DNA from: Candidatus Jettenia caeni
GTDB lineage: Bacteria; Planctomycetota; Brocadiia; Brocadiales; Brocadiaceae
NCBI GenBank assembly: GCA_000296795.1
Contig: BAFH01000003.1
Location: forward strand, 401 to 64,400
Direction of reading: 5' to 3'
DNA length: 64,000 nt
Shown here: positions 844 through 33,645 of the stretch, in pieces
How the letters are laid out: every line of letters begins with the position of its first letter
Numbering within the stretch: position 1 is the first letter of the stretch
Made by a program: the position numbers and the translations under genes
Notes under the pieces: generated by a model
The model's database searches: none
The model's input: the letters and a program-made list of their open reading frames with translations, nothing else
What the model was told of the DNA's origin: nothing

Positions 844-1180
844 CTTCTGTGTATGCATTTGTCTACACAGAGTATGTTTTTGCCAATATACAAGCCATAA
901 ATATATCTATATGCAGCATAACTACTTAGCTATAGTATTAATAAATTTTGTATCTATATGCATACAGAGAACAGGATCATGCTTTACCAATAAAAATAAA
1001 ATTATGAATATCGAAGTGTGTGTAACGGCTAGTTATTTATATAGTTATATGTCCGCTTTAGTCTGATAAAAAATTTTTATACACATAACTTCTTTTGCAG
1101 GCATGCTGTTTGTAATCTACGAGAAGAACTTTATTAAGCGTACTTTTCAATAAATTAAAATGTTGAGAATATTACTATAG
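844..1180 (+). promoter_or_regulatory. EPS leader, copy A (homologous to 24957-25325)
   Basis: This non-coding stretch before the first EPS gene aligns block by block with the region upstream of 25326. Shared blocks in order are: a CTGTGTA-N10-TACACAG dyad (847-870); AGAGTATG with CCAATATA; CTTAGCT; TAAATTTTGTAT; a TGTAT-N8-ATACA dyad (949-966); AATAAAAATAAAATTAT; TGTGTAAC; AGTTATTTA; CTGATAAAAAATTTTTATA; and AGGCATGCTGTTTGTA. A small open frame at 809-1066 overlaps it, but substitutions and indels against copy B do not respect codons, so I treat it as non-coding. It is probably a shared promoter and enhancer region for EPS transcription. Confidence 0.75.
1099..1114 (+). promoter_or_regulatory. 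Sigma-54-like promoter box, copy A
   Basis: AGGCATGCTGTTTGTA fits the -24/-12 pattern TGGCAYR-N4-TTGCW with GG and G(T) separated by exactly ten bases. It deviates at the first base and has GT where GC is expected. All 16 bases are identical in the second leader (25215-25230) although the surrounding sequence has diverged. A start about 12 bases downstream would give an mRNA leader of roughly 55 bases before the ATG at 1181. Confidence 0.5.
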
Positions 1181-4255: not shown

Positions 4256-4317
4256 TGCACTATCAATAGAATTCATGATAATACGGTTTGTATCGGTTCA
4301 ACTGCATGAGGCTGTGT

Positions 4318-4394
4318 CATTGCGAGGGTATTGTCCGAAGCAATCCCCTGGACATTTCAAAAGAGATTGCTTCGGGAAAAAACCCCTCGCAATG
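4318..4394. repeat. Palindromic dispersed repeat (family CATTGCGAGGG), copy 1
   Basis: The arms CATTGCGAGGGTATTGTCC and its near complement, ending CCCCTCGCAATGG, enclose GAAGCAATC/GATTGCTTC inner arms, giving a long hairpin. The reverse complement of this sequence recurs at 24564-24639 with few differences. A further shared string (TTATCCTGACAGTGTAC versus TTATCCTGACACTGTAC) lies downstream of both copies. It lies in the 250-base gap between the dehydrogenase and the FemAB-like gene. A small open frame over it is not credible as a gene. Confidence 0.75.
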
Positions 4395-4505
4395 GCAAAT
4401 ACTCTAAAGCCTATTGTGGTAAATTATCCTGACAGTGTACCAGGTATGGGTAGGGAGTTTTTTGAACTTATGAAAAGCTCTTGTTTTTAATAACGGGAGG
4501 TAGTA

Positions 4506-11341: not shown

Positions 11342-12085
11342 ATGGTAATTAAATTTTTAAATGCTGATTATTATCACGCAAAAGTAAAATCTAAGCTCGT
11401 AATTGATTTTTTAAAATCGAGACGTGCTGGTGAAAGCATTTTGGATATGGGTGCAGGGGAAATGCCATTCAAGAAATATTGCGGGCATCTTAACTATACG
11501 AGTCAAGACTTCTGTCAATACGAGGGAAAAGGAGATGGCAGAGGACTACAGACTAATACATTTGACGTAAAAGGAATAGATATAGTATGCGATATCAAGC
11601 AAATACCTGTACCTGACGGGAGGTATGATAATATATTATGCTCTGAAGTGTTGGAGCATATAGAAAATCCTCTTGAAGGTATTCAAGAAATGAAGCGAAT
11701 ATTAAAACCCGGCGGCAAGGTTATTATAACAGTACCAGGTACATCTCTTTTGCATTTTTCCCCCTATCATTATTATACCGGATTTAAAGATAATTTTTTT
11801 AATTTGCTCTTAGGGAAGTCGGGGTTTGATATTGATAAGATTACAAGAGTAGGAACAATTTATTCAGTCACAGCTCTTTACCTTTGGTATATTGCTGATA
11901 AGTTCTCAAAAGTAATCTTTCCATGGAGATCTTCACTATTCTTTAAGATGCTTATTCTCGGATTTTCACCATGTATATCTCTGTTTTTGATCCTTGATTC
12001 CATAAGGATATTAGACACCAGGACCATAGAAGCCGGCCTTTTAGTTATAGCAACAAAAAGACATGAGAATTCGCATGGTACGTAA
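11342..12085 (+). CDS. Class I SAM-dependent methyltransferase (Methyltransf_11 type)
   Basis: Motif I is ILDMGAGEMPFKKY. The IVCDIKQIPVPDGRYDNILCSEVLEHIENPLEGIQEMKRILKPGGKVIITVP stretch, described here by its order rather than as one motif, is the textbook motif III-V run of Methyltransf_11 proteins. It is followed by SPYHYYTGFKDNF, typical of EPS-cluster members, and a short hydrophobic segment (SSLFFKMLILGFSPCISLFLIL) that may anchor it in the membrane. The ATG at 11342 follows AAAGGATTTAT. Its last 23 bases overlap the start of a decayed glycosyltransferase copy. The likely role is methylation of a sugar or lipid-linked precursor. Confidence 0.85.
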   Translation: MVIKFLNADYYHAKVKSKLVIDFLKSRRAGESILDMGAGEMPFKKYCGHLNYTSQDFCQYEGKGDGRGLQTNTFDVKGIDIVCDIKQIPVPDGRYDNILCSEVLEHIENPLEGIQEMKRILKPGGKVIITVPGTSLLHFSPYHYYTGFKDNFFNLLLGKSGFDIDKITRVGTIYSVTALYLWYIADKFSKVIFPWRSSLFFKMLILGFSPCISLFLILDSIRILDTRTIEAGLLVIATKRHENSHGT

Positions 12086-12410
12086 CAATTCTTACGATAT
12101 TGGTGGAGTAATAAACTATACTCGTCCCTTGGCAATAAAATTTACTAGACTGGGATATTGCGTATCCTATTTATATTTTGGTGGTACGGCAAAGAGAAAA
12201 TATAACTGATTTTAATACCTTATCTTAGAATTAACAGAAGAGATTTTCCTTTTAAATGTGCAGAACCGATGAATCCTCCTAACTGGATGTATAGGAATTT
12301 CAAACTAATCATGGAGTGGCAAGGCGCGCCTTGCCACTACACGTCGCTAAAGGCATAGTTTATAACTATGGTGCTCCTTTGCTTGATATAAATGCCCATT
12401 AAACATGGGA
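12063..12410 (+). pseudogene. Decayed glycosyltransferase N-terminus, paralogue of the gene at 13682
   Basis: Reading from ATG 12063 gives MRIRMVRNNSYDIGG and then VINYTRPLAIKFTRLGY, matching MRILMVGNDPHDIGG and VVNYTRPLALKFVEMGH of the intact gene downstream. The frame stops at TGA 12207-12209. The homology continues in other frames through PYLRINRRDF, CAEPMNPPNWMY and, after an inserted palindrome, YNYGAPLLDINAH. The match ends near 12410. So this is a remnant of a duplicated glycosyltransferase, inactivated by stop codons and indels and interrupted by a repeat. 12411-12542 shows no recognisable gene. Confidence 0.85.
12315..12338. repeat. Perfect palindrome AGTGGCAAGG-CGCG-CCTTGCCACT inside the pseudogene
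   Basis: The 24-base perfect palindrome plus the flank ACACGTCGC belongs to the same family as 21196-21224, where the order is GCGACGTGTAGTGGCAA. It sits in about 45-55 extra bases (roughly 12303-12357) that break the alignment of the glycosyltransferase remnant with its intact paralogue, so the insertion is directly visible. Confidence 0.8.
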
Positions 12411-13625: not shown

Positions 13626-13681
13626 GGATCTGAAATGCTGAGATCAGAGAAAATGGTTTTTTGGCTATAGGTATAAAAGAT

Positions 13682-15097
13682 ATGAGAATTCTCATGGTAG
13701 GTAATGACCCTCATGATATAGGCGGGGTTGTAAATTATACTCGTCCTCTTGCCTTAAAATTTGTTGAAATGGGACATAAGGTTTTTTATTTCTATTCCGG
13801 TGCATGGAATAGAAGGTATAACTATCTCTTCAGGCCATATCTCAGGATTCATAGAAGAGATTTTTCCTTTGAGTGCGCAGAACTGATGAACTCTCCAAAC
13901 TGGACATATAATTACGGTAATCCCTTGCTTGATATACACGCTCATCAAACAGAAAAATTGTTTATAAAATACATGGAAAAAATAAAACCTGATGTAGTAC
14001 ACGTTCATAGCCGCTGTGGGCTTCCGGCATCACTTATTGAGATTGCTTCAAATCATGGATTGAGGGTCTTCACTACTATTCATGTATACGGTTTCTTATG
14101 CCAGAAAAGAGTAATGATTGACCATCATGGAATGCCCTGCAAAGGACCCTCTGATGCAGACAAATGTGCTCAATGCACAGGGTATGTCGATATAAAAAGA
14201 TTAAAGCATACCGTACGACTAGAAAATACCAGCAAACAATTGTTTACATTGGCTAAATCGCTCCTTGGCATACTAAGGAAATGCAGCAGATCCAAAAAAT
14301 CTGATCAGAGAAGTAGTAACGATCCTGCGCCATGTAAAGGTATTGCACATTATGAGAAAATAAAGGCAAAACTGCAGGAAAGACTTGATTATATGATTCA
14401 TGCGATGAATACGTATACGGTTACAAACCTGTGTGTATCTACTGATGTAAAAAGAACCCTTATGAGATATGGTGTTCATGAAGATAAGCTCTTAGTCCAG
14501 CATATAGGTTCATCAATTGCAGAAAACCAGAAGTTAAACAGGAGAACATTACATACGCCTATTGTAATAGGGAATATCGGAGGAGTGCACCATTATAAAG
14601 GAACGCACGTTTTAGTGGAAGCAGTAAAGAATATCAAAAATAAAAATTTCATAGTAAAAATATTCGGCAAATATGATCAGGCCTATGTAGAAAGCGTAAT
14701 GCAGGGAAAAGAAGATTTACCGATAGAGTTTTTGGGAAAATATCAGCCAACTGATTTGTTTGAAATATTAAAGCAGGTAGACATCATGGTGCTTCCTTCT
14801 ATCTGTAATGACACAGCGCCGCAAACTATTTTTGAGAGTTACAGTGCAGGCATCCCGATTGTTGCCTCTGATATAGGCGGGTTTCCGGATTTTATAAAAG
14901 ACGGGGTTAGTGGATGTCTTTTTAGGCCGGGAGATAGTCAGGATCTGGCAGATAAATTGGATAAGGTATTAACAGATCCTCAAAAGATAGAATCATTTTC
15001 ATGGAAGGTTCCAAAACTTAAGACAATTACCGATAATGCTCTGGAGTTAGTAGCCTTGTACAAAAAATGTATTGAGAATAATTCAATAACAACTTAA
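13682..15097 (+). CDS. Glycosyltransferase family 4 (GT-B)
   Basis: The N-terminal domain begins MRILMVGNDPHDIGGVVNYTRPLA, the usual glycine-rich acceptor-site start. An unusual cysteine-rich insert (CQKRVMIDHHGMPCKG, DADKCAQCTGY) around residues 145-175 may bind metal. It is often seen in EPS glycosyltransferases after the VHVHS segment. The C-terminal domain has IGNIGGVHHYKGTHVLVEA and the E-x7-E region FESYSAGIPIVASDIGGFPDFI, which contacts the nucleotide sugar. I chose ATG 13682 over an upstream TTG because it matches the start of the decayed paralogue at 12063. It probably adds one sugar of the EPS repeat unit. Confidence 0.87.
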   Translation: MRILMVGNDPHDIGGVVNYTRPLALKFVEMGHKVFYFYSGAWNRRYNYLFRPYLRIHRRDFSFECAELMNSPNWTYNYGNPLLDIHAHQTEKLFIKYMEKIKPDVVHVHSRCGLPASLIEIASNHGLRVFTTIHVYGFLCQKRVMIDHHGMPCKGPSDADKCAQCTGYVDIKRLKHTVRLENTSKQLFTLAKSLLGILRKCSRSKKSDQRSSNDPAPCKGIAHYEKIKAKLQERLDYMIHAMNTYTVTNLCVSTDVKRTLMRYGVHEDKLLVQHIGSSIAENQKLNRRTLHTPIVIGNIGGVHHYKGTHVLVEAVKNIKNKNFIVKIFGKYDQAYVESVMQGKEDLPIEFLGKYQPTDLFEILKQVDIMVLPSICNDTAPQTIFESYSAGIPIVASDIGGFPDFIKDGVSGCLFRPGDSQDLADKLDKVLTDPQKIESFSWKVPKLKTITDNALELVALYKKCIENNSITT

Positions 15098-17562: not shown

Positions 17563-17621
17563 TACGGAATTAAAATTCCTCAACAGGAAACCAGGATAGA
17601 CCATAACTCGTAACACTTTGA

Positions 17622-17662
17622 TTTTTGGAAAATAACCCCGTAGGGGTGAAATGTTTATAGAA
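17622..17662 (+). repeat. 41-base dispersed repeat with CCCCGTAGGGG core, copy 1
   Basis: The 41 bases TTTTTGGAAAATAA + YCCCRTAGGGG + TGAAATGTTTATAGAA recur at 32556-32596 with only two differences, both C/T or G/A in the hairpin core. Copy 1 is intergenic, 28 bases before the GTG of the next glycosyltransferase. Confidence 0.85.
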
Positions 17663-24545: not shown

Positions 24546-24563
24546 GCTGCTTTTTCATATTAC

Positions 24564-24639
24564 CATTGCGAGGGGTTTTCTCCCGAAGCATCTCTTCTGA
24601 ACTATTCAAGGGATTGCTTCGGACAATACCCTCGCAATG
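24564..24639. repeat. Palindromic dispersed repeat (family CATTGCGAGGG), copy 2, inverted
   Basis: The reverse complement reads CATTGCGAGGGTATTGTCC and GAAGCAATCCC, and ends in CCCCTCGCAATGG like copy 1 at 4318-4394; the loop region is the most divergent part. It lies directly next to the IS110 non-coding end. The two copies are in opposite orientation about 20 kb apart. Confidence 0.75.
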
Positions 24640-24956
24640 ACAAGATACTATCTGAGAGAAATGCTCAACGTCTCGATTCAATCGTGGAAGATTGAGCCAG
24701 CCGTATAGTATCATGAGTTATCCTGACACTGTACTGTTCGGTTTTATACAGGAGATACTATAATTATGATTGGTTTCACATCTTTAACCCCTTACAAAAG
24801 GCAAAAACCATTTTTTCAGAAAGACGCCTTAATTTAGAGCTGATCTCAACTTCTTCTTCCAGACCATTTCAATCTTAATTATACTATTTCCCTTATATTA
24901 TGTTACTTAGCACACCCTTGTGCCCTTTTCGAACAATATAGTGTAACTCCAGATTT

Positions 24957-25325
24957 CTTCTGTGTATACATTTACCTACACAGAGTATGGTTTTACCAAT
25001 ATATGAACCATAACATATATGTATATAAAGGATAATCACTTAGCTGTGATACTAGTAAATTTTGTATTCATATACATACAAAAGATAAGATCAGATTTTA
25101 TTAATAAAAATAAAATTATTGTATACCGAAAGATGTGTAACAAGTAGTTATTTAAACAGTTACATATTTATTTTATTTCTGATAAAAAATTTTTATAGAA
25201 GTCGTTCTTTTTATAGGCATGCTGTTTGTAGTTTATGTGCTACCGTATTAGACTTTATTGAGTATGCCTTATAAACAAGGGTTTTTCTTCATGTTTAGAC
25301 AGATTTTATTTTTTAATAAATTACT
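24957..25325 (+). promoter_or_regulatory. EPS leader, copy B (homologous to 844-1180)
   Basis: It carries the same ordered blocks as copy A: CTGTGTA-N10-TACACAG (24960-24983), CTTAGCT, TAAATTTTGTAT, TGTAT-N8-ATACA (25063-25080), TTAATAAAAATAAAATTAT, TGTGTAAC, AGTTATTTA, CTGATAAAAAATTTTTATA and AGGCATGCTGTTTGTA. The spacers differ in sequence and by a few bases in length, and the last 60 bases before the start codon are not conserved. 24640-24956 shows no gene. The leader precedes the second EPS block, as copy A precedes the first. Confidence 0.75.
25215..25230 (+). promoter_or_regulatory. Sigma-54-like promoter box, copy B
   Basis: AGGCATGCTGTTTGTA, identical to 1099-1114, with GG-N10-GT spacing. 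A start about 12 bases downstream gives a leader of roughly 80 bases before the ATG at 25326. The match is imperfect (GT instead of GC at -12), but its complete conservation inside a diverged region supports function. Confidence 0.5.
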
Positions 25326-28668: not shown

Positions 28669-28988
28669 ATTTTTGGTAAACAAATTACCCGGAGACTACG
28701 AGGACCATAGTAAAACGCTTCTCTGTATTCTCTGTATTTCTGTGTTTAAAAAATGAAGTAAGGTTGCCAGCAGACCGGCAAATAAGTATAGCTGGCAATC
28801 TTAGGGACCTGATAAGGAAGATATACTATCTCTCTTTGCTTAGGCCTTTTTTGTTTTATCAGGTTTATTGTTTCAATCAATTCAGGAGGTATATCGTATT
28901 TTAAAGCTTAACAGGAAAGCAATACGAAAGCTATGTCATAACCATAATCTTAACAAGATAAAATATTTTAAATAACGGAGTGTACTAC
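28669..28988. other. Structured intergenic region before the carbamoyltransferase
   Basis: No gene is seen. Three inverted repeats occur in order: GGTTGCCAGC/GCTGGCAATC (28762-28800, with one G-U pair), ACCTGATAA/TTATCAGGT (28807-28864, enclosing GGCCTTTTTT) and TCGTATT/AATACGA (about 28893-28929). The second, with its T-run, could be a weak terminator for the upstream genes. The group could also be a structured leader of the carbamoyltransferase mRNA. Confidence 0.45.
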
Positions 28989-30695
28989 ATGAAGATATTA
29001 GGAATTCACGATGGCCATAATGCTTCTGTATGTTTATATGAGAAGGGTAAAATATTAGCAGCTCTTCAAGAAGAAAGGATAAAAAGGATAAAAAATTGGT
29101 TTGGAATTCCAACGGAAGCGATTGAATGGGTATTAAAATATGCAAACGTTAAGAAGGACAATATTGACATAGTCGCAGTTCACAGTGAGTATATGCCTTC
29201 TCCAAAGACAAAAGATGAGATGATACATGAATATGAGAATATAGGAGCTTTGAGATATAGGGTGAAAAAGTATTTAAGGCATACTTTTTTAAAAAATATT
29301 GTGGTGAGAAAAAGAAAGATTGAAAGGATGAAAGAAATTAATAATCTGGGTTTTGATAAATCTAAAATTCGTTTTGTAAATCATCATCAATGTCATGCTG
29401 CAGCCGCCTATTATGGTTACGGAAACTTTGATGAACCTATTTTGATATTAACAAATGATGGCGCAGGAGACAACATATGCGCAAGTGTTAATATAGGAGA
29501 AAAAGGGAAAATACGAACCATAGAAACCATTGTTGATTCTGAATCGATAGGCAATCTCTACGCAGTGATTACTTTTATGATGGGGATGGTTCCCCTGGAG
29601 CATGAGTATAAAATAATGGGCATGGCGCCTTATGCTGATGCAAAAGGCGTAGAAAAAGTTTTTACCATGTTAATGGACAGATTTGAGTTTGATAAAAATA
29701 ACCCTTTAAAGTGGCATCGGAAGGGAGATGTTCCTGAGATATTTTTTGCTTATCCCTATCTTAAGAGACTTTTCGAGTTAGAACGATTTGATGGAGTGAT
29801 GGGAGGTATTCAAAAATTTACCGAGGTGATGTTAACACAATGGGTCAAGAACTGTATTATGAAAACCGATTTGCATAAGGTTGTGCTCAGTGGTGGGGTC
29901 TTTATGAATGTAAAAGCGAATAAACTTATCATGGAATTGCCAGAAGTTGATGATTTGTTTATTTATCCATCGTGTGGGGATGAAACGAATGCTATAGGTG
30001 CTTGTTATAAAATGTATGCTGATGAAGTAGGTATCGGGGATATTAAAACCCTCGAAGATTTTTATTTCGGTCCGCGTTATTCTGATTATGAGGTGTTGAA
30101 TACCATCAGTAATTATAAATTCGAAAACTGCCGGATTGTGTTTAAAAAATCAGAGGCTATTGAAAAAGAAGTGGCGACACTTCTCAAAAACGGAGAAGTT
30201 GTTGCGAGGTTTGCCGGAAGAGAAGAATTTGGCGCACGAAGTCTGGGGAATCGGGCAATTTTAGCAGATCCGTCAAGAACGGATATTATAAAAATTATTA
30301 ACGAAATGATAAAAAACCGTGACTTCTGGATGCCATTTGCATGTTCAGTATTAGAAGAATATGCGAGTCATTATGTAATAAACCAAAAAAGTGTTAAGGC
30401 TCCCTATATGATTTTAACATTTGATACTACGGAAAGGGTTGATGATATCAGAGCCGGGACTCATCCGTATGATAATACGATACGTCCACAGATAGTCTCA
30501 AAAATACATAACAAGAGATACCACAGATTAATTAGCGAGTTTAAGGATATGACAGGTATCGGTGCAGTTTTAAATACATCATTCAATCTCCATGGCTATC
30601 CCATTGTGCATAGTCCAAAAGATGCTTTAGAAGTTCTGGATAAATCCGGATTAAAATATCTTGCGATTGAAAATTATCTGATTTGGAAAAAATAA
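28989..30695 (+). CDS. NodU/CmcH-type O-carbamoyltransferase
   Basis: The 568-residue enzyme transfers a carbamoyl group from carbamoyl phosphate, via carbamoyl-adenylate, to a hydroxyl of the glycan. The N-terminal half starts MKILGIHDGHNASVCLYEKGKILAALQEERIKR, the kinase-like ATPase fold of this family. It also has the metal and active-site histidines in FVNHHQCHAAAAYYGYG and the LTNDGAGDNICASV segment. The C-terminal domain has SGGVFMNVKANK and FAGREEFGARSLGNRAILADP, both diagnostic. The ATG at 28989 follows GGAG by eight bases and is preferred to a GTG at 28980. The stop abuts the ATG of the amidotransferase gene, so the two are coupled. Confidence 0.9.
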   Translation: MKILGIHDGHNASVCLYEKGKILAALQEERIKRIKNWFGIPTEAIEWVLKYANVKKDNIDIVAVHSEYMPSPKTKDEMIHEYENIGALRYRVKKYLRHTFLKNIVVRKRKIERMKEINNLGFDKSKIRFVNHHQCHAAAAYYGYGNFDEPILILTNDGAGDNICASVNIGEKGKIRTIETIVDSESIGNLYAVITFMMGMVPLEHEYKIMGMAPYADAKGVEKVFTMLMDRFEFDKNNPLKWHRKGDVPEIFFAYPYLKRLFELERFDGVMGGIQKFTEVMLTQWVKNCIMKTDLHKVVLSGGVFMNVKANKLIMELPEVDDLFIYPSCGDETNAIGACYKMYADEVGIGDIKTLEDFYFGPRYSDYEVLNTISNYKFENCRIVFKKSEAIEKEVATLLKNGEVVARFAGREEFGARSLGNRAILADPSRTDIIKIINEMIKNRDFWMPFACSVLEEYASHYVINQKSVKAPYMILTFDTTERVDDIRAGTHPYDNTIRPQIVSKIHNKRYHRLISEFKDMTGIGAVLNTSFNLHGYPIVHSPKDALEVLDKSGLKYLAIENYLIWKK

Positions 30696-32594
30696 ATGTG
30701 CGGAATTGCAGGTATATTCAACTATAAAAATACCCATTCATTAAATCCCTCACTCCTCAGGCGGATGTGTAAGACTATTGCTCATCGGGGCCCCGATGAC
30801 GAAGGTTTTTATATGAATCAGAGAGACAGATTAGGTATCGGGCACAGGCGATTGAGTATTATTGATCTTAAACTGGGGAAACAGCCCATGTCGAATTTTC
30901 ATGAAAGTATTTGGATTGTGTTTAATGGTGAGATTTATAATTTCATTGAATTGAAGAAAGAATTGCAAGCAAAGGGATATCGTTTTCGCACAACCTCTGA
31001 TACCGAAGTTATCATTTTGCTCTATGAAGAGTATGGAGAAAAAGGATTCGAACGGCTGAATGGAATATTTGCGTTTGCGATTTATGATAAGAATAAACGA
31101 TCTCTCATTCTCGTTCGTGATCATTTTGGGGTGAAGCCACTGTACTATTGGATAAGGAATGGAAGGGTGCTGTTTGCCTCAGAAATGAAAGCCATTTTTC
31201 AGGATGATTCAGTAGAAAAGGAATTAGATTCCGAAGCGCTCAATTCTTTTCTGACATTTCGTTACAATCCCTCGCCGCAGACGTTATTTAAGCATGTTAA
31301 GAAATTGTATCCTGGCCATTATCTGAAGATCACCTTTGAAGGCGGCTGGGAAATGAAAAGCTACTGGGAAAATATTCCCAAAATTAATACCCGCATCACT
31401 GAAAATGATGCTGCTGAAGAGTATCGTCGCTTGCTTACAAATGCTGTTAAACGGCAAATGATGAGCGATGTTCCCGTAGGGTTGCTCTTAAGCGGGGGCG
31501 TAGACTCAGCGGTCCTGGGTTATTTAATGCAAAAGAATTATTCTGAAAAGGTAAAGACTTTCACCGTTGGATTCCCGGGAAGTGGGGATTACAACGAACT
31601 ACATGATGCGCGGTCTTCTGCGCAATTCATCGAGTCAGAACATCACGATATCACTATCTCATATAAGGATTATTTAGATTTTTTCTATAGATCCTTTTCC
31701 ATCATAGAAGAACCAATTGCTGAGACAGCAATTCCCGCTCTTTACTATGTTTCAAAATTCGCTTCAAATCATTTGAAAGTGGTACTGGCAGGGCAGGGGG
31801 CAGATGAACCTATGGCTGGCTATCATCGTTATTTAGGCGCTCATTTCATAAGCAAATATGCAGACATTTTGAGAAATTTACCACTCACGATGATTACAAA
31901 ATTTCTGTCAAGAAACGAGCGATTAAAGAGGGCTGCTTACGTAAGTCAGTTTTCTGGCGAGTTAGAAAGAATATTGGCAGTCTATACAATTTTTACTCCT
32001 GTTCAGCAAGAGCTGCTGTATAACGATTATACGAAATCATTGAATACAAGTATGGATGAAGAATTGATTTACCGCCTGTATTCTCAAACGAAAGAGTTAC
32101 CGGATATGTTATCGAAGATTTTATATATCGATACCAGGATGAGTTTGTCTGATGACCTGTTGCTTTTTAATGACAAAGTTACTATGGCTAATTCTCTTGA
32201 AATGCGTGTTCCTTTTTTAGACATCGAATTAGTTCAGTTTTTAGAATCACTTCCACGGTCGTTGAAACTAAAAGGAACTCAACGCAAATATATTCACAAA
32301 AGGGCTGTAGAATCCTGGCTGCCGAAAGAAATTATTTATCGCAGGAAAAGAGGCTTTATGACACCCATGGATGAATGGCTCCAGGATGACCTGGCAATTA
32401 CCGTAAAAGAAATCCTCATGCATAAGGACTCTGCTTGTAAAAGGTACTTTAATCTGGACTATATTAACCAATTGATCGAACTCCATAAAAGCAGGAGAGA
32501 AAATTATCAGAAGCATATATTTGTGCTTTTATCCTTTGAGATGTGGCACAAAACGTTTTTGGAAAATAATCCCATAGGGGTGAAATGTTTATAG
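30696..32594 (+). CDS. asnB: Asparagine synthase-like amidotransferase (EPS-associated)
   Basis: Class II glutamine amidotransferase domain: the Met is followed by the catalytic cysteine (MCGIAGIFNY), then AHRGPDDEGFY and GHRRLSIIDL. The synthetase domain has the PPi loop LLLSGGVDSAVLGYL near residue 266, LAGQGADEPMAGYHRY and MANSLEMRVPFLDIELVQFL. Length (632) and these motifs match the amidotransferases of exosortase/EPS clusters, which may amidate uronic acids, as well as ordinary AsnB. The position between a carbamoyltransferase and an acyltransferase favours glycan amidation. The last codons (NNPIGVKCL) are supplied by a dispersed repeat also found at 17622. The ATG directly follows the upstream stop. 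Confidence 0.88.
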   Translation: MCGIAGIFNYKNTHSLNPSLLRRMCKTIAHRGPDDEGFYMNQRDRLGIGHRRLSIIDLKLGKQPMSNFHESIWIVFNGEIYNFIELKKELQAKGYRFRTTSDTEVIILLYEEYGEKGFERLNGIFAFAIYDKNKRSLILVRDHFGVKPLYYWIRNGRVLFASEMKAIFQDDSVEKELDSEALNSFLTFRYNPSPQTLFKHVKKLYPGHYLKITFEGGWEMKSYWENIPKINTRITENDAAEEYRRLLTNAVKRQMMSDVPVGLLLSGGVDSAVLGYLMQKNYSEKVKTFTVGFPGSGDYNELHDARSSAQFIESEHHDITISYKDYLDFFYRSFSIIEEPIAETAIPALYYVSKFASNHLKVVLAGQGADEPMAGYHRYLGAHFISKYADILRNLPLTMITKFLSRNERLKRAAYVSQFSGELERILAVYTIFTPVQQELLYNDYTKSLNTSMDEELIYRLYSQTKELPDMLSKILYIDTRMSLSDDLLLFNDKVTMANSLEMRVPFLDIELVQFLESLPRSLKLKGTQRKYIHKRAVESWLPKEIIYRRKRGFMTPMDEWLQDDLAITVKEILMHKDSACKRYFNLDYINQLIELHKSRRENYQKHIFVLLSFEMWHKTFLENNPIGVKCL

Positions 32595-32596
32595 AA
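32556..32596 (+). repeat. 41-base dispersed repeat, copy 2, forming the 3' end of asnB
   Basis: Same 41 bases as 17622-17662 with two differences (ATCCCATAGGGG versus ACCCCGTAGGGG). The asnB reading frame runs into the repeat and uses its internal TAG (32592-32594) as stop, so about the last 12 residues are encoded by repeat sequence. Confidence 0.85.
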
Positions 32597-32619
32597 ACTT
32601 TGATAGAAGGATATTTGGT

Positions 32620-33645
32620 ATGGGCTTAGAAAGAGATTTGGTCTCTTATTTAAAAGGATTCTCTATTATCATAATAATTCTTCATCATTACATAATAAAT
32701 TATTTGCCGGATCATTTTAATTTTTTTGGTAATCATTTTGTCGCTATATTCTTCATCCTGAGTGGCTATGGTATTTATTATTCATTGAATAATAATTCTC
32801 ATAACAATGGAAACTTACTCCCTTTCCTGAGTAAGTTTTATTGGAAAAGGGCAATACGAATATACCCTCTGTATTGGTTATGGTTTTTTCTTGATCAGGC
32901 GGGCGACAAAAATTCCCATGTCAGTTTAAGTTCCTTACTTGATTTTTTCTTACTGAGAATAACCGATCCTCCCGATCATTGGTTTCTGCATGCCCTCATC
33001 CCATGTTACATTATTTCTCCAGTATTTTTTTCCCTGTTGGAAAAATATCATAAAGCTTATCTGCCAATAATTATTGGAACATTTATTTTGCTAAACCCTC
33101 TATTATATTATATAGGTGTTCCTGAAGTCAGAACCTGGAAATATGTAAATTTGTACCTTACCCATGTCTTGCTTTTTTCTTTAGGAATGTATATTCCTTC
33201 ATTTCAATATCTCAAACAGCTTAGACAAAATCGTATCTTTTTATTCGGATTGTTTCTTTGTATGATTTTTTCATTTTTTCAGACATCTTCAAATGCTTTT
33301 TTTTACAGAAGCAAAAACTATGAGTATCTATTTATTATGTTATTTATAGCATCTACATTTAGCTTTACATTCTATTTTATACATTCAAATATTAATCCCC
33401 CGCTCTATAGTTTTATGAAAAAAATCGGTATATATACGTATTCATTATACATATTCCACGGCATGTATTTTACCGTCTTATGCTTTGTGCATATAATAAA
33501 AAACGATAGCTATGCGAGTCTCATGTTGACAATTGTACTATTCCCGCTCTTTTTTGTGTGTTGTGGTTTTCTTGAAGAACTATTTTATAATAGATTAAAA
33601 TTCCGGCAGGCCTACAAAAAATGTAAAAATAAAGTAATGTATTAA
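32620..33645 (+). CDS. Acyltransferase 3 family membrane protein (OafA/WcaH-like)
   Basis: The 341-residue protein has about ten hydrophobic helices. The family signature is at the N-terminus: LVSYLKGFSIIIIILHHYIINYL supplies the catalytic-histidine region, and FFILSGYGIYYSL is the conserved SGF/SGY motif. Later, FYWKRAIRIYPLYWLWFF is the R-x(3)-R-(I/L)-x-P-(L/Y) motif. It probably transfers an acetyl or other acyl group to EPS sugars at the inner membrane. It is the last gene of the second EPS block and starts 25 bases after asnB, next to the repeat. Confidence 0.87.
   Translation: MGLERDLVSYLKGFSIIIIILHHYIINYLPDHFNFFGNHFVAIFFILSGYGIYYSLNNNSHNNGNLLPFLSKFYWKRAIRIYPLYWLWFFLDQAGDKNSHVSLSSLLDFFLLRITDPPDHWFLHALIPCYIISPVFFSLLEKYHKAYLPIIIGTFILLNPLLYYIGVPEVRTWKYVNLYLTHVLLFSLGMYIPSFQYLKQLRQNRIFLFGLFLCMIFSFFQTSSNAFFYRSKNYEYLFIMLFIASTFSFTFYFIHSNINPPLYSFMKKIGIYTYSLYIFHGMYFTVLCFVHIIKNDSYASLMLTIVLFPLFFVCCGFLEELFYNRLKFRQAYKKCKNKVMY

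What the first reader, a model, noticed from the sequence alone, without database searches (positions are those of the whole stretch)
32556..32596. A dispersed repeat has become the C-terminus of the amidotransferase
The 41-base repeat at 17622-17662 (39 of 41 identical) recurs at the end of asnB, and the gene uses the repeat's TAG as its stop, so NNPIGVKCL is repeat-encoded. This is a clear case of a repeat altering a protein end without killing the gene.
Basis: seen in the sequence. Interest (0 to 1): 0.5.

Follow-up and report, generated by a model that had tools for sequence, protein, structure and literature searches.

The report
Mobile repeat fragment ends an enzyme
In this anammox-type bacterium a fragment of a small mobile DNA repeat has replaced the last few amino acids and the stop signal of a working enzyme gene; a close relative still has a different ending, and similar cases are already known from other bacteria.

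Summary
In detail: window 32556-32596 matches 17622-17662 at 39 of 41 bases, and asnB (30696-32594) stops at the repeat's TAG. A sister species (G017, AsnB 98% identical) is colinear up to 32567 and again from 32598; in between it has 71 unrelated bases instead of 30 repeat bases, so it ends FLEN-QEMDRGTGKIADNH where ours ends FLEN-NPIGVKCL. None of 35 other homologues whose C-terminus was read ends in NPIGVKCL; the conserved core stops at about FLEN. One correction: the first 12 bases of the '41-mer' also occur in the repeat-free allele, so 8 residues plus the stop are repeat-encoded, not 9. The 41-mer is the left end of a ~216-base palindromic, MITE/BIME-like element found in Brocadiaceae. 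In 18 of 49 copies examined the element breaks off just after TTTATAGAA. Best mechanism: capture of such a left end through the 12-base homology, with loss of native bases (inferred). The enzyme was not killed: domain complete, dN/dS 0.065. Which allele is ancestral is not strictly shown (no outgroup allele). The kind of event is known (RU-1 in enterobacteria; REPs that supply stop codons), so interest is modest.

The parts
30696..32594 (+). asnB-type glutamine amidotransferase / asparagine synthase-like gene, 632 aa
   Evidence: ORF; TIGR01536 510.4 bits over cut-off 267.1, TIGR03108 510.6 bits below its cut-off 816.9; Pfam GATase_7 and Asn_synthase, the latter 242-619
32556..32567 (+). TTTTTGGAAAAT, codons for FLEN (621-624): matches the repeat's left end but also present in the repeat-free G017 allele and aligned with conserved core; proposed homology junction
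32568..32597 (+). 30-base repeat module that stands in place of 71 bases of G017; encodes NPIGVKCL and the stop
32571..32579 (+). CCC-ATA-GGG mini-hairpin, the hairpin of the repeat unit (CCCC-RTA-GGGG in most copies)
   Evidence: consensus and fold
32592..32594 (+). TAG stop codon supplied by the repeat
17622..17662 (+). second window copy (39 of 41 identical), intergenic; preceded at 17610-17621 by GTAACACTTTGA, the outer part of the element's terminal repeat; its site also carries a copy in G017 (C1:2617446)
28980..30695 (+). upstream neighbour: carbamoyltransferase (Carbam_trans_N and _C)
32620..33645 (+). downstream neighbour: Acyl_transf_3 acyltransferase; GATAGAAGGATATTTGGT before its ATG identical in both alleles

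Best explanation
A solo left end of a Brocadiaceae palindromic mobile element replaced the non-conserved 3' end of asnB. The left junction lies in a 12-base stretch (TTTTTGGAAAAT) that asnB has because it encodes its conserved FLEN end and that happens to resemble the element's terminal sequence (TTTTTTGAAAAAT); recombination or template switching through this short homology copied 30 bases of repeat (to TTTATAGAAA) and resumed at CTTTGATAG upstream of the next gene. The native 14-residue tail (as kept in G017) was replaced by NPIGVKCL and the repeat's TAG became the stop. Shown: the two alleles, their boundaries, the repeat's spread, the variable tails of homologues, and that the gene body is under purifying selection. 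Inferred: that G000 is the changed allele, and the homology-driven route. I expect no functional consequence for the enzyme.
For: Clean replacement of 71 by 30 bases between colinear flanks of 97% and 95% identity. G017's 71 bases have no second copy in G017 and none in G000 or G016; in the 33 family genomes the only other match is a weak 36-base one in G024. The repeat has 13 matches in G000, matches in 19 of 33 family genomes, and in 84,980 species genomes the exact 27-base core was found in 21 stretches, 20 titled Brocadiaceae, Brocadia or Jettenia and one 'Planctomycetes bacterium'. Core ends near FLEN in 36 aligned C-termini and tails vary; the paralogue in the same genome ends FFEGR. TTTTTGGAAAAT or TTTTTGAAAAAT with at most 1 mismatch occurs only 6 or 8 times in 128,000 positions of the window, repeat copies included, so meeting it at the junction by chance is unlikely. 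dN/dS 0.065 over codons 1-624.
Against: Only two alleles are known: G016 lacks the orthologue (best match 38%), so the direction of change rests on the homologue comparison, not on an outgroup allele. The right junction has only a shared C or CT, so homology explains one side only. The recurrent break after TTTATAGAA (18 of 49 copies) and the frequent ACT after it (7 of 17, against 0 of 30 non-truncated copies) hint at a specific cleavage rather than random repair.
Confidence: 0.6

Rival explanations
1. A whole ~216-base element inserted at the end of asnB (before or after the species split) and later lost its centre and right arm together with native sequence, leaving a solo left end.
For: The solo break is recurrent (18 of 49 copies). 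At two sites with both flanks shared, G000 has a solo left end where G016 has the whole element (L131 against L138, L157 against L176).
Against: The asnB copy also lacks the element's outermost 12 bases (GTAACACnnTAG), so its left border is not the usual element end; G017 shows no remnant of the element.
Confidence: 0.25
2. An IS200/IS605-like Y1 transposase joined the single-stranded unit at this site, cutting after TTTATAGAA and rejoining at (A)CT.
For: 9 Y1_Tnp matches in G000; two apparently intact ones (L072, L073) have variant units of similar design close by. ACT follows the break in 7 of 17 truncated copies and 0 of 30 others. TnpAREP enzymes cleave at CT or CA (PMC8266576, passages).
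Against: Simple insertion would not remove about 71 bases; G017 has TCT, not ACT, at the joint; 7 of 9 Y1 loci have no convincing unit nearby; no call shows activity.
Confidence: 0.12
3. The coding sequence came first: NPIGVKCL is an old asnB tail and the repeats derive from it.
For: None found.
Against: 0 of 35 other C-termini carry it; the repeat exists as a longer non-coding palindrome in many species; 48 of 49 copies examined are not entered by an open frame of 80 or more codons.
Confidence: 0.01
4. Assembly artefact joining asnB to a repeat.
For: The genome is a draft of 4 contigs and contains a 23.4-kb near-identical duplicated block close by.
Against: Both flanks of the repeat are colinear with G017, and a 30-base repeat is far shorter than what usually misleads assembly.
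Confidence: 0.02

Closest known systems
RU-1 small mobile sequence at the 3' end of enterobacterial genes (Delihas 2007, PMC2759123; passages seen)
   Same: A small non-autonomous repeat fused to the 3' end of an enzyme gene beyond the conserved domain, removing the normal stop; in ECA0168 only 13 residues come from the repeat.
   Different: Unrelated 127-base repeat, other phylum; here the repeat-free sister allele shows the exact replacement (30 for 71 bases) and a 12-base homology at the left junction.
REP/BIME repeats (GTAG- and CGTC-tagged families, PMC3733652; passages seen)
   Same: Short palindromes, single or in inverted composites; that paper says REP termini often provide TAG stop codons to flanking ORFs, and lists REPs inside ORFs.
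   Different: No clear GTAG guide 5' of the hairpin here; the full element has long terminal inverted repeats; the nearby Y1 enzymes score as IS200-type, below the REP-associated cut-off.
Bacterial MITEs, including those of Coxiella (PMC5896051, only its search listing and start of abstract seen) and Rickettsia palindromic elements (recalled)
   Same: Short non-coding palindromic elements with terminal inverted repeats that can end up in coding sequence.
   Different: No parent transposon with the same terminal repeats was found; the unit in asnB is a fragment, not a whole in-frame insertion.
Class B asparagine synthetase / XrtA-PEP-CTERM amidotransferase family
   Same: Complete N-terminal glutaminase and Asn_synthase domains.
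   Different: Below the TIGR03108 cut-off; its exact substrate is unknown; the tail is repeat-encoded.

Membership tests
MITE | Short (< ~600 bases), non-coding, many copies | tested here: met
   Consensus 216 bases; 56, 151 and 58 matches to the left-end model in G000, G016, G017 at E <= 0.01, partial ones included and only 150 first-look candidates scored per genome
MITE | Terminal inverted repeats | tested here: met
   GTAACACnnTAGTTTTTTGAAAAA pairs with the right end; the 216-base consensus folds end to end, -62.8 kcal/mol with DNA parameters
MITE | Target-site duplication | not tested
   No empty/filled pair of a full-length copy was analysed for it
MITE | Parent transposon with the same ends | tested here: inconclusive
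   9 Y1_Tnp loci of G000 scanned; 2 have variant hairpin units, none showed the terminal repeat; other transposase families were not searched
REP/RAYT system | GTAG-type guide 5' of the hairpin | tested here: inconclusive
   TAG is conserved about 15 bases before the hairpin but the preceding G varies
REP/RAYT system | Cognate REP-associated tyrosine transposase | tested here: not met
   The two intact Y1 proteins tested score 27.5 and 35.7 bits against NF047646 (cut-off 80) but pass the IS200/IS605 model NF033573 (60.9, 64.3; cut-off 55); the other 7 Y1 loci were not scored there
Asparagine synthase, glutamine-hydrolysing (TIGR01536) | Score over the curated cut-off | tested here: met
   510.4 bits, cut-off 267.1
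XrtA/PEP-CTERM amidotransferase (TIGR03108) | Score over the curated cut-off | tested here: not met
   510.6 bits, cut-off 816.9

The most novel reading that the evidence does not exclude
The left end of this palindromic element is a recombination-active module in its own right: it is cut reproducibly after TTTATAGAA, joined one-sidedly to targets (often at ACT), and so repeatedly makes new junctions, including new gene ends such as asnB's, by a specific single-strand (Y1-type) reaction rather than by random repair.
Probability: 0.15. Interest if true: 0.45.

Novelty: new member of a known kind. Interest (0 to 1): 0.22.

Why it matters
It is a clean before/after pair, at two-species resolution, of a gene taking its last residues and stop codon from a mobile repeat, with the junctions placed to the base. 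It illustrates how the unconstrained ends of proteins can be rewritten by repeats without loss of function, and it warns annotators that C-terminal tails such as NPIGVKCL in Brocadiaceae proteins may be repeat sequence. It does not open a new class of phenomenon.

Tried and rejected
Looking for close AsnB relatives in the named genome collection with six peptide patterns gave no relative; the unnamed-genome searches did. Rfam found nothing at 32400-32750. Reading the 41-mer as a complete repeat was rejected after the flank comparison. Reading the whole 41 bases as foreign was rejected because G017 has the first 12. The idea that solo copies are precise excision products was dropped: in the pairs aligned, bases beyond the element's right end are missing too (L131 against L138). 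Of five pairs aligned, only two (L131/L138, L157/L176) share both flanks next to the repeat; in L148/L130 and L150/L140 only the right flank is shared, and in L167/L141 the left flanks are displaced, with L141 resuming in the element's right arm, so it is an internal deletion and not a true solo although it is among the 18. The 49 copies were picked by hand from the strongest model matches; at least one full-length match (G016:C26:8711) was left out, and L143/L145 are one copy duplicated. One homologue (L103) gave no frame and was dropped from the C-terminus table; several of the 35 are close relatives of each other. The weak G024 match to G017's 71 bases (L159) was not looked at. The fetched loci L191-L195 were not analysed further. 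An AlphaFold model was not made.

Full report
What is there. The gene at 30696-32594 is a 632-residue glutamine amidotransferase of the asparagine synthase type (Pfam Asn_synthase complete at residues 242-619), between a carbamoyltransferase (28980-30695) and an acyltransferase (32620-33645). Its last bases match the intergenic copy at 17622-17662 in 39 of 41 positions. The genome (G000, 4 contigs, 4.09 Mb) holds 13 matches to the asnB end, itself included.

The decisive comparison. In a species of the same genus (G017, one contig) the orthologue is 98% identical in protein over residues 1-626. DNA is colinear at 97% up to window 32567 and at 95% from 32598; between them the window has 30 bases (AATCCCATAGGGGTGAAATGTTTATAGAAA) and G017 has 71 other bases. 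The proteins therefore end FLEN-NPIGVKCL (window) and FLEN-QEMDRGTGKIADNH (G017). G017's 71 bases have no other match in G017, G000 or G016; across the 33 family genomes searched only G024 gave another, weak, match (E 4.4e-4, 36 bases; not examined). The third species of the genus, G016, lacks this orthologue (best match 38%). Contig lengths identify G016 as Candidatus Jettenia ecosi J2; that G000 is Ca. Jettenia caeni and G017 Ca. Jettenia asiatica is a guess from recall.

Homologues. Of 392 genomes of the phylum, 108 have a match at E <= 1e-100. I read 36 C-termini, window included (one further locus, L103, gave no frame; some of the 36 are near-duplicates). The alignable core ends at F-[LIVF]-[ED]-[NG]-like positions, residue 624 here; tails beyond vary from none to about 18 residues, and none of the 35 others is NPIGVKCL. 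The paralogue in the same genome (66% identical) ends FFEGR. The other matches were seen only as alignment ranges; a few run to 629-631, mostly by reading through stops.

Consequence. Codons 1-624 differ from G017 by 48.0 synonymous and 13.0 non-synonymous changes, dN/dS 0.065: the gene is constrained. This is a pairwise figure and does not date the tail change relative to the constraint. The 18 bases before the next ATG are unchanged; the gap between the genes is 25 bases here and 48 in G017. In the other two frames the unit and the following bases would give tails of 2 and 19 residues, so a short tail was to be expected whatever the frame; the use of the TAG needs no special explanation.

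What the repeat is. Aligning 18 longer copies shows a ~216-base imperfect palindrome: terminal repeats GTAACACnnTAGTTTTTTGAAAAA, then the hairpin CCCC-RTA-GGGG with TGAAATGTTTATAGAAA, a central palindrome around AGCTCCATCGGAGCGGCATG, and an inverted counterpart of the first half; the consensus folds end to end. The 41-mer is its left end. DNA matches occur in 19 of 33 family genomes; the exact 27-base core occurs in 21 stretches among 84,980 species genomes, 20 titled Brocadiaceae, Brocadia or Jettenia and one Planctomycetes bacterium (where the window's own genome may be left out).

Solo ends. In 18 of 49 hand-picked strong copies (12 G000, 17 G017, 20 G016) similarity to the element stops at consensus positions 52-64, 17 of them at 52-59, just after TTTATAGAA; one of the 18 (L141) resumes in the right arm. 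In G000 it is 9 of 12, of which two (L143, L145) are one duplicated copy. At two sites with both flanks shared, G000 has the solo end where G016 has the whole element. At G000:C3:644551 both sisters lack the repeat and share the right flank from ACTATGAAC on, while the G000 left flank is different DNA: the unit sits at a rearrangement joint. Three solo sites are shared by G000 and G017 (L137/L162, L145/L154, L149/L152), so units are of mixed age. Only the asnB copy, 1 of 49, is entered on either strand by a frame with 80 or more open codons (flanks of about 1.5 kb, less at contig ends).

Mechanism. The 12 bases TTTTTGGAAAAT are in the repeat-free allele, encode FLEN at the end of the conserved core and differ from the element's usual TTTTTGAAAAAT by one base. 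Such 12-mers with at most one mismatch occur 6 to 8 times in 128,000 window positions. The simplest account is that this resemblance guided recombination or template switching from another copy, which carried over 30 bases and came back at CTTTGATAG. The right joint shares only C or CT. Since the homologues show the core without the repeat, the gene came first under any timing; whether G017 later lost the unit cannot be excluded without an outgroup allele. The alternative, whole-element insertion and later deletion, is plausible because solo ends recur, but the asnB copy lacks the outer terminal repeat as well.

Possible mobiliser. G000 has 9 Y1_Tnp matches. Two (L072, L073) have variant hairpin units nearby, against 4 hits of the same loose pattern, none with the hairpin by eye, in 233,570 control bases. 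These two proteins pass the IS200/IS605 model and fail the REP-associated one. ACT follows TTTATAGAA in 7 of 17 truncated copies and 0 of 30 others (not all sites independent, two copies without a clear motif not listed). This is a lead only.

Known context. Delihas 2007 (PMC2759123, passages) describes RU-1 fused to the 3' end of an amidase gene beyond the conserved domain with loss of the normal stop. PMC3733652 (passages) states that REP termini often provide TAG stops to flanking ORFs. The event is therefore a new member of a known kind. Two literature searches that combined anammox or planctomycete names with palindromic-repeat or MITE terms listed no paper whose title or abstract start describes this element, and passages of one Kuenenia comparison (PMC7709395) mention only CRISPR repeats; that is a limited search.

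Noticed in passing
window 2988-26404 and G000:C2:822000-845416: A block of at least 23,417 bases is 99.996% identical between contigs C3 (this window) and C2; it ends at window 26404 and its left end was not reached. Recent duplication or assembly effect; it duplicates the 17622 repeat copy.
   Followed up: partly
17 truncated copies in G000, G016, G017: Truncated copies break after TTTATAGAA and often continue with ACT (7 of 17, against 0 of 30 others); in four comparisons the ACT belongs to the flank as found in a sister species.
   Followed up: partly
L134 (G000:C3:644551): A solo repeat end sits exactly at a rearrangement joint: right flank as in both sister species, left flank different DNA.
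   Followed up: partly
L072 (G000:C3:1292857) and L073 (G000:C4:188616): Two IS200-like Y1 transposase genes with variant hairpin units nearby (two direct copies of a AATCCC..GGGATGACATGATTATAGGA type, and inverted GCTCCGTAGGAGC units, respectively).
   Followed up: partly
window 4315-4398 and 24560-24642: Another dispersed repeat (CATTGCGAGGGGTTTTCTCCCGAAGCAA type) in inverted orientation; a similar sequence lies downstream of the asnB paralogue in L068 and in L186.
   Followed up: no
window 844-1119 and 24957-25235; 12056-12405 and 13675-13951: Two pairs of diverged direct duplications (73-86% identical pieces).
   Followed up: no
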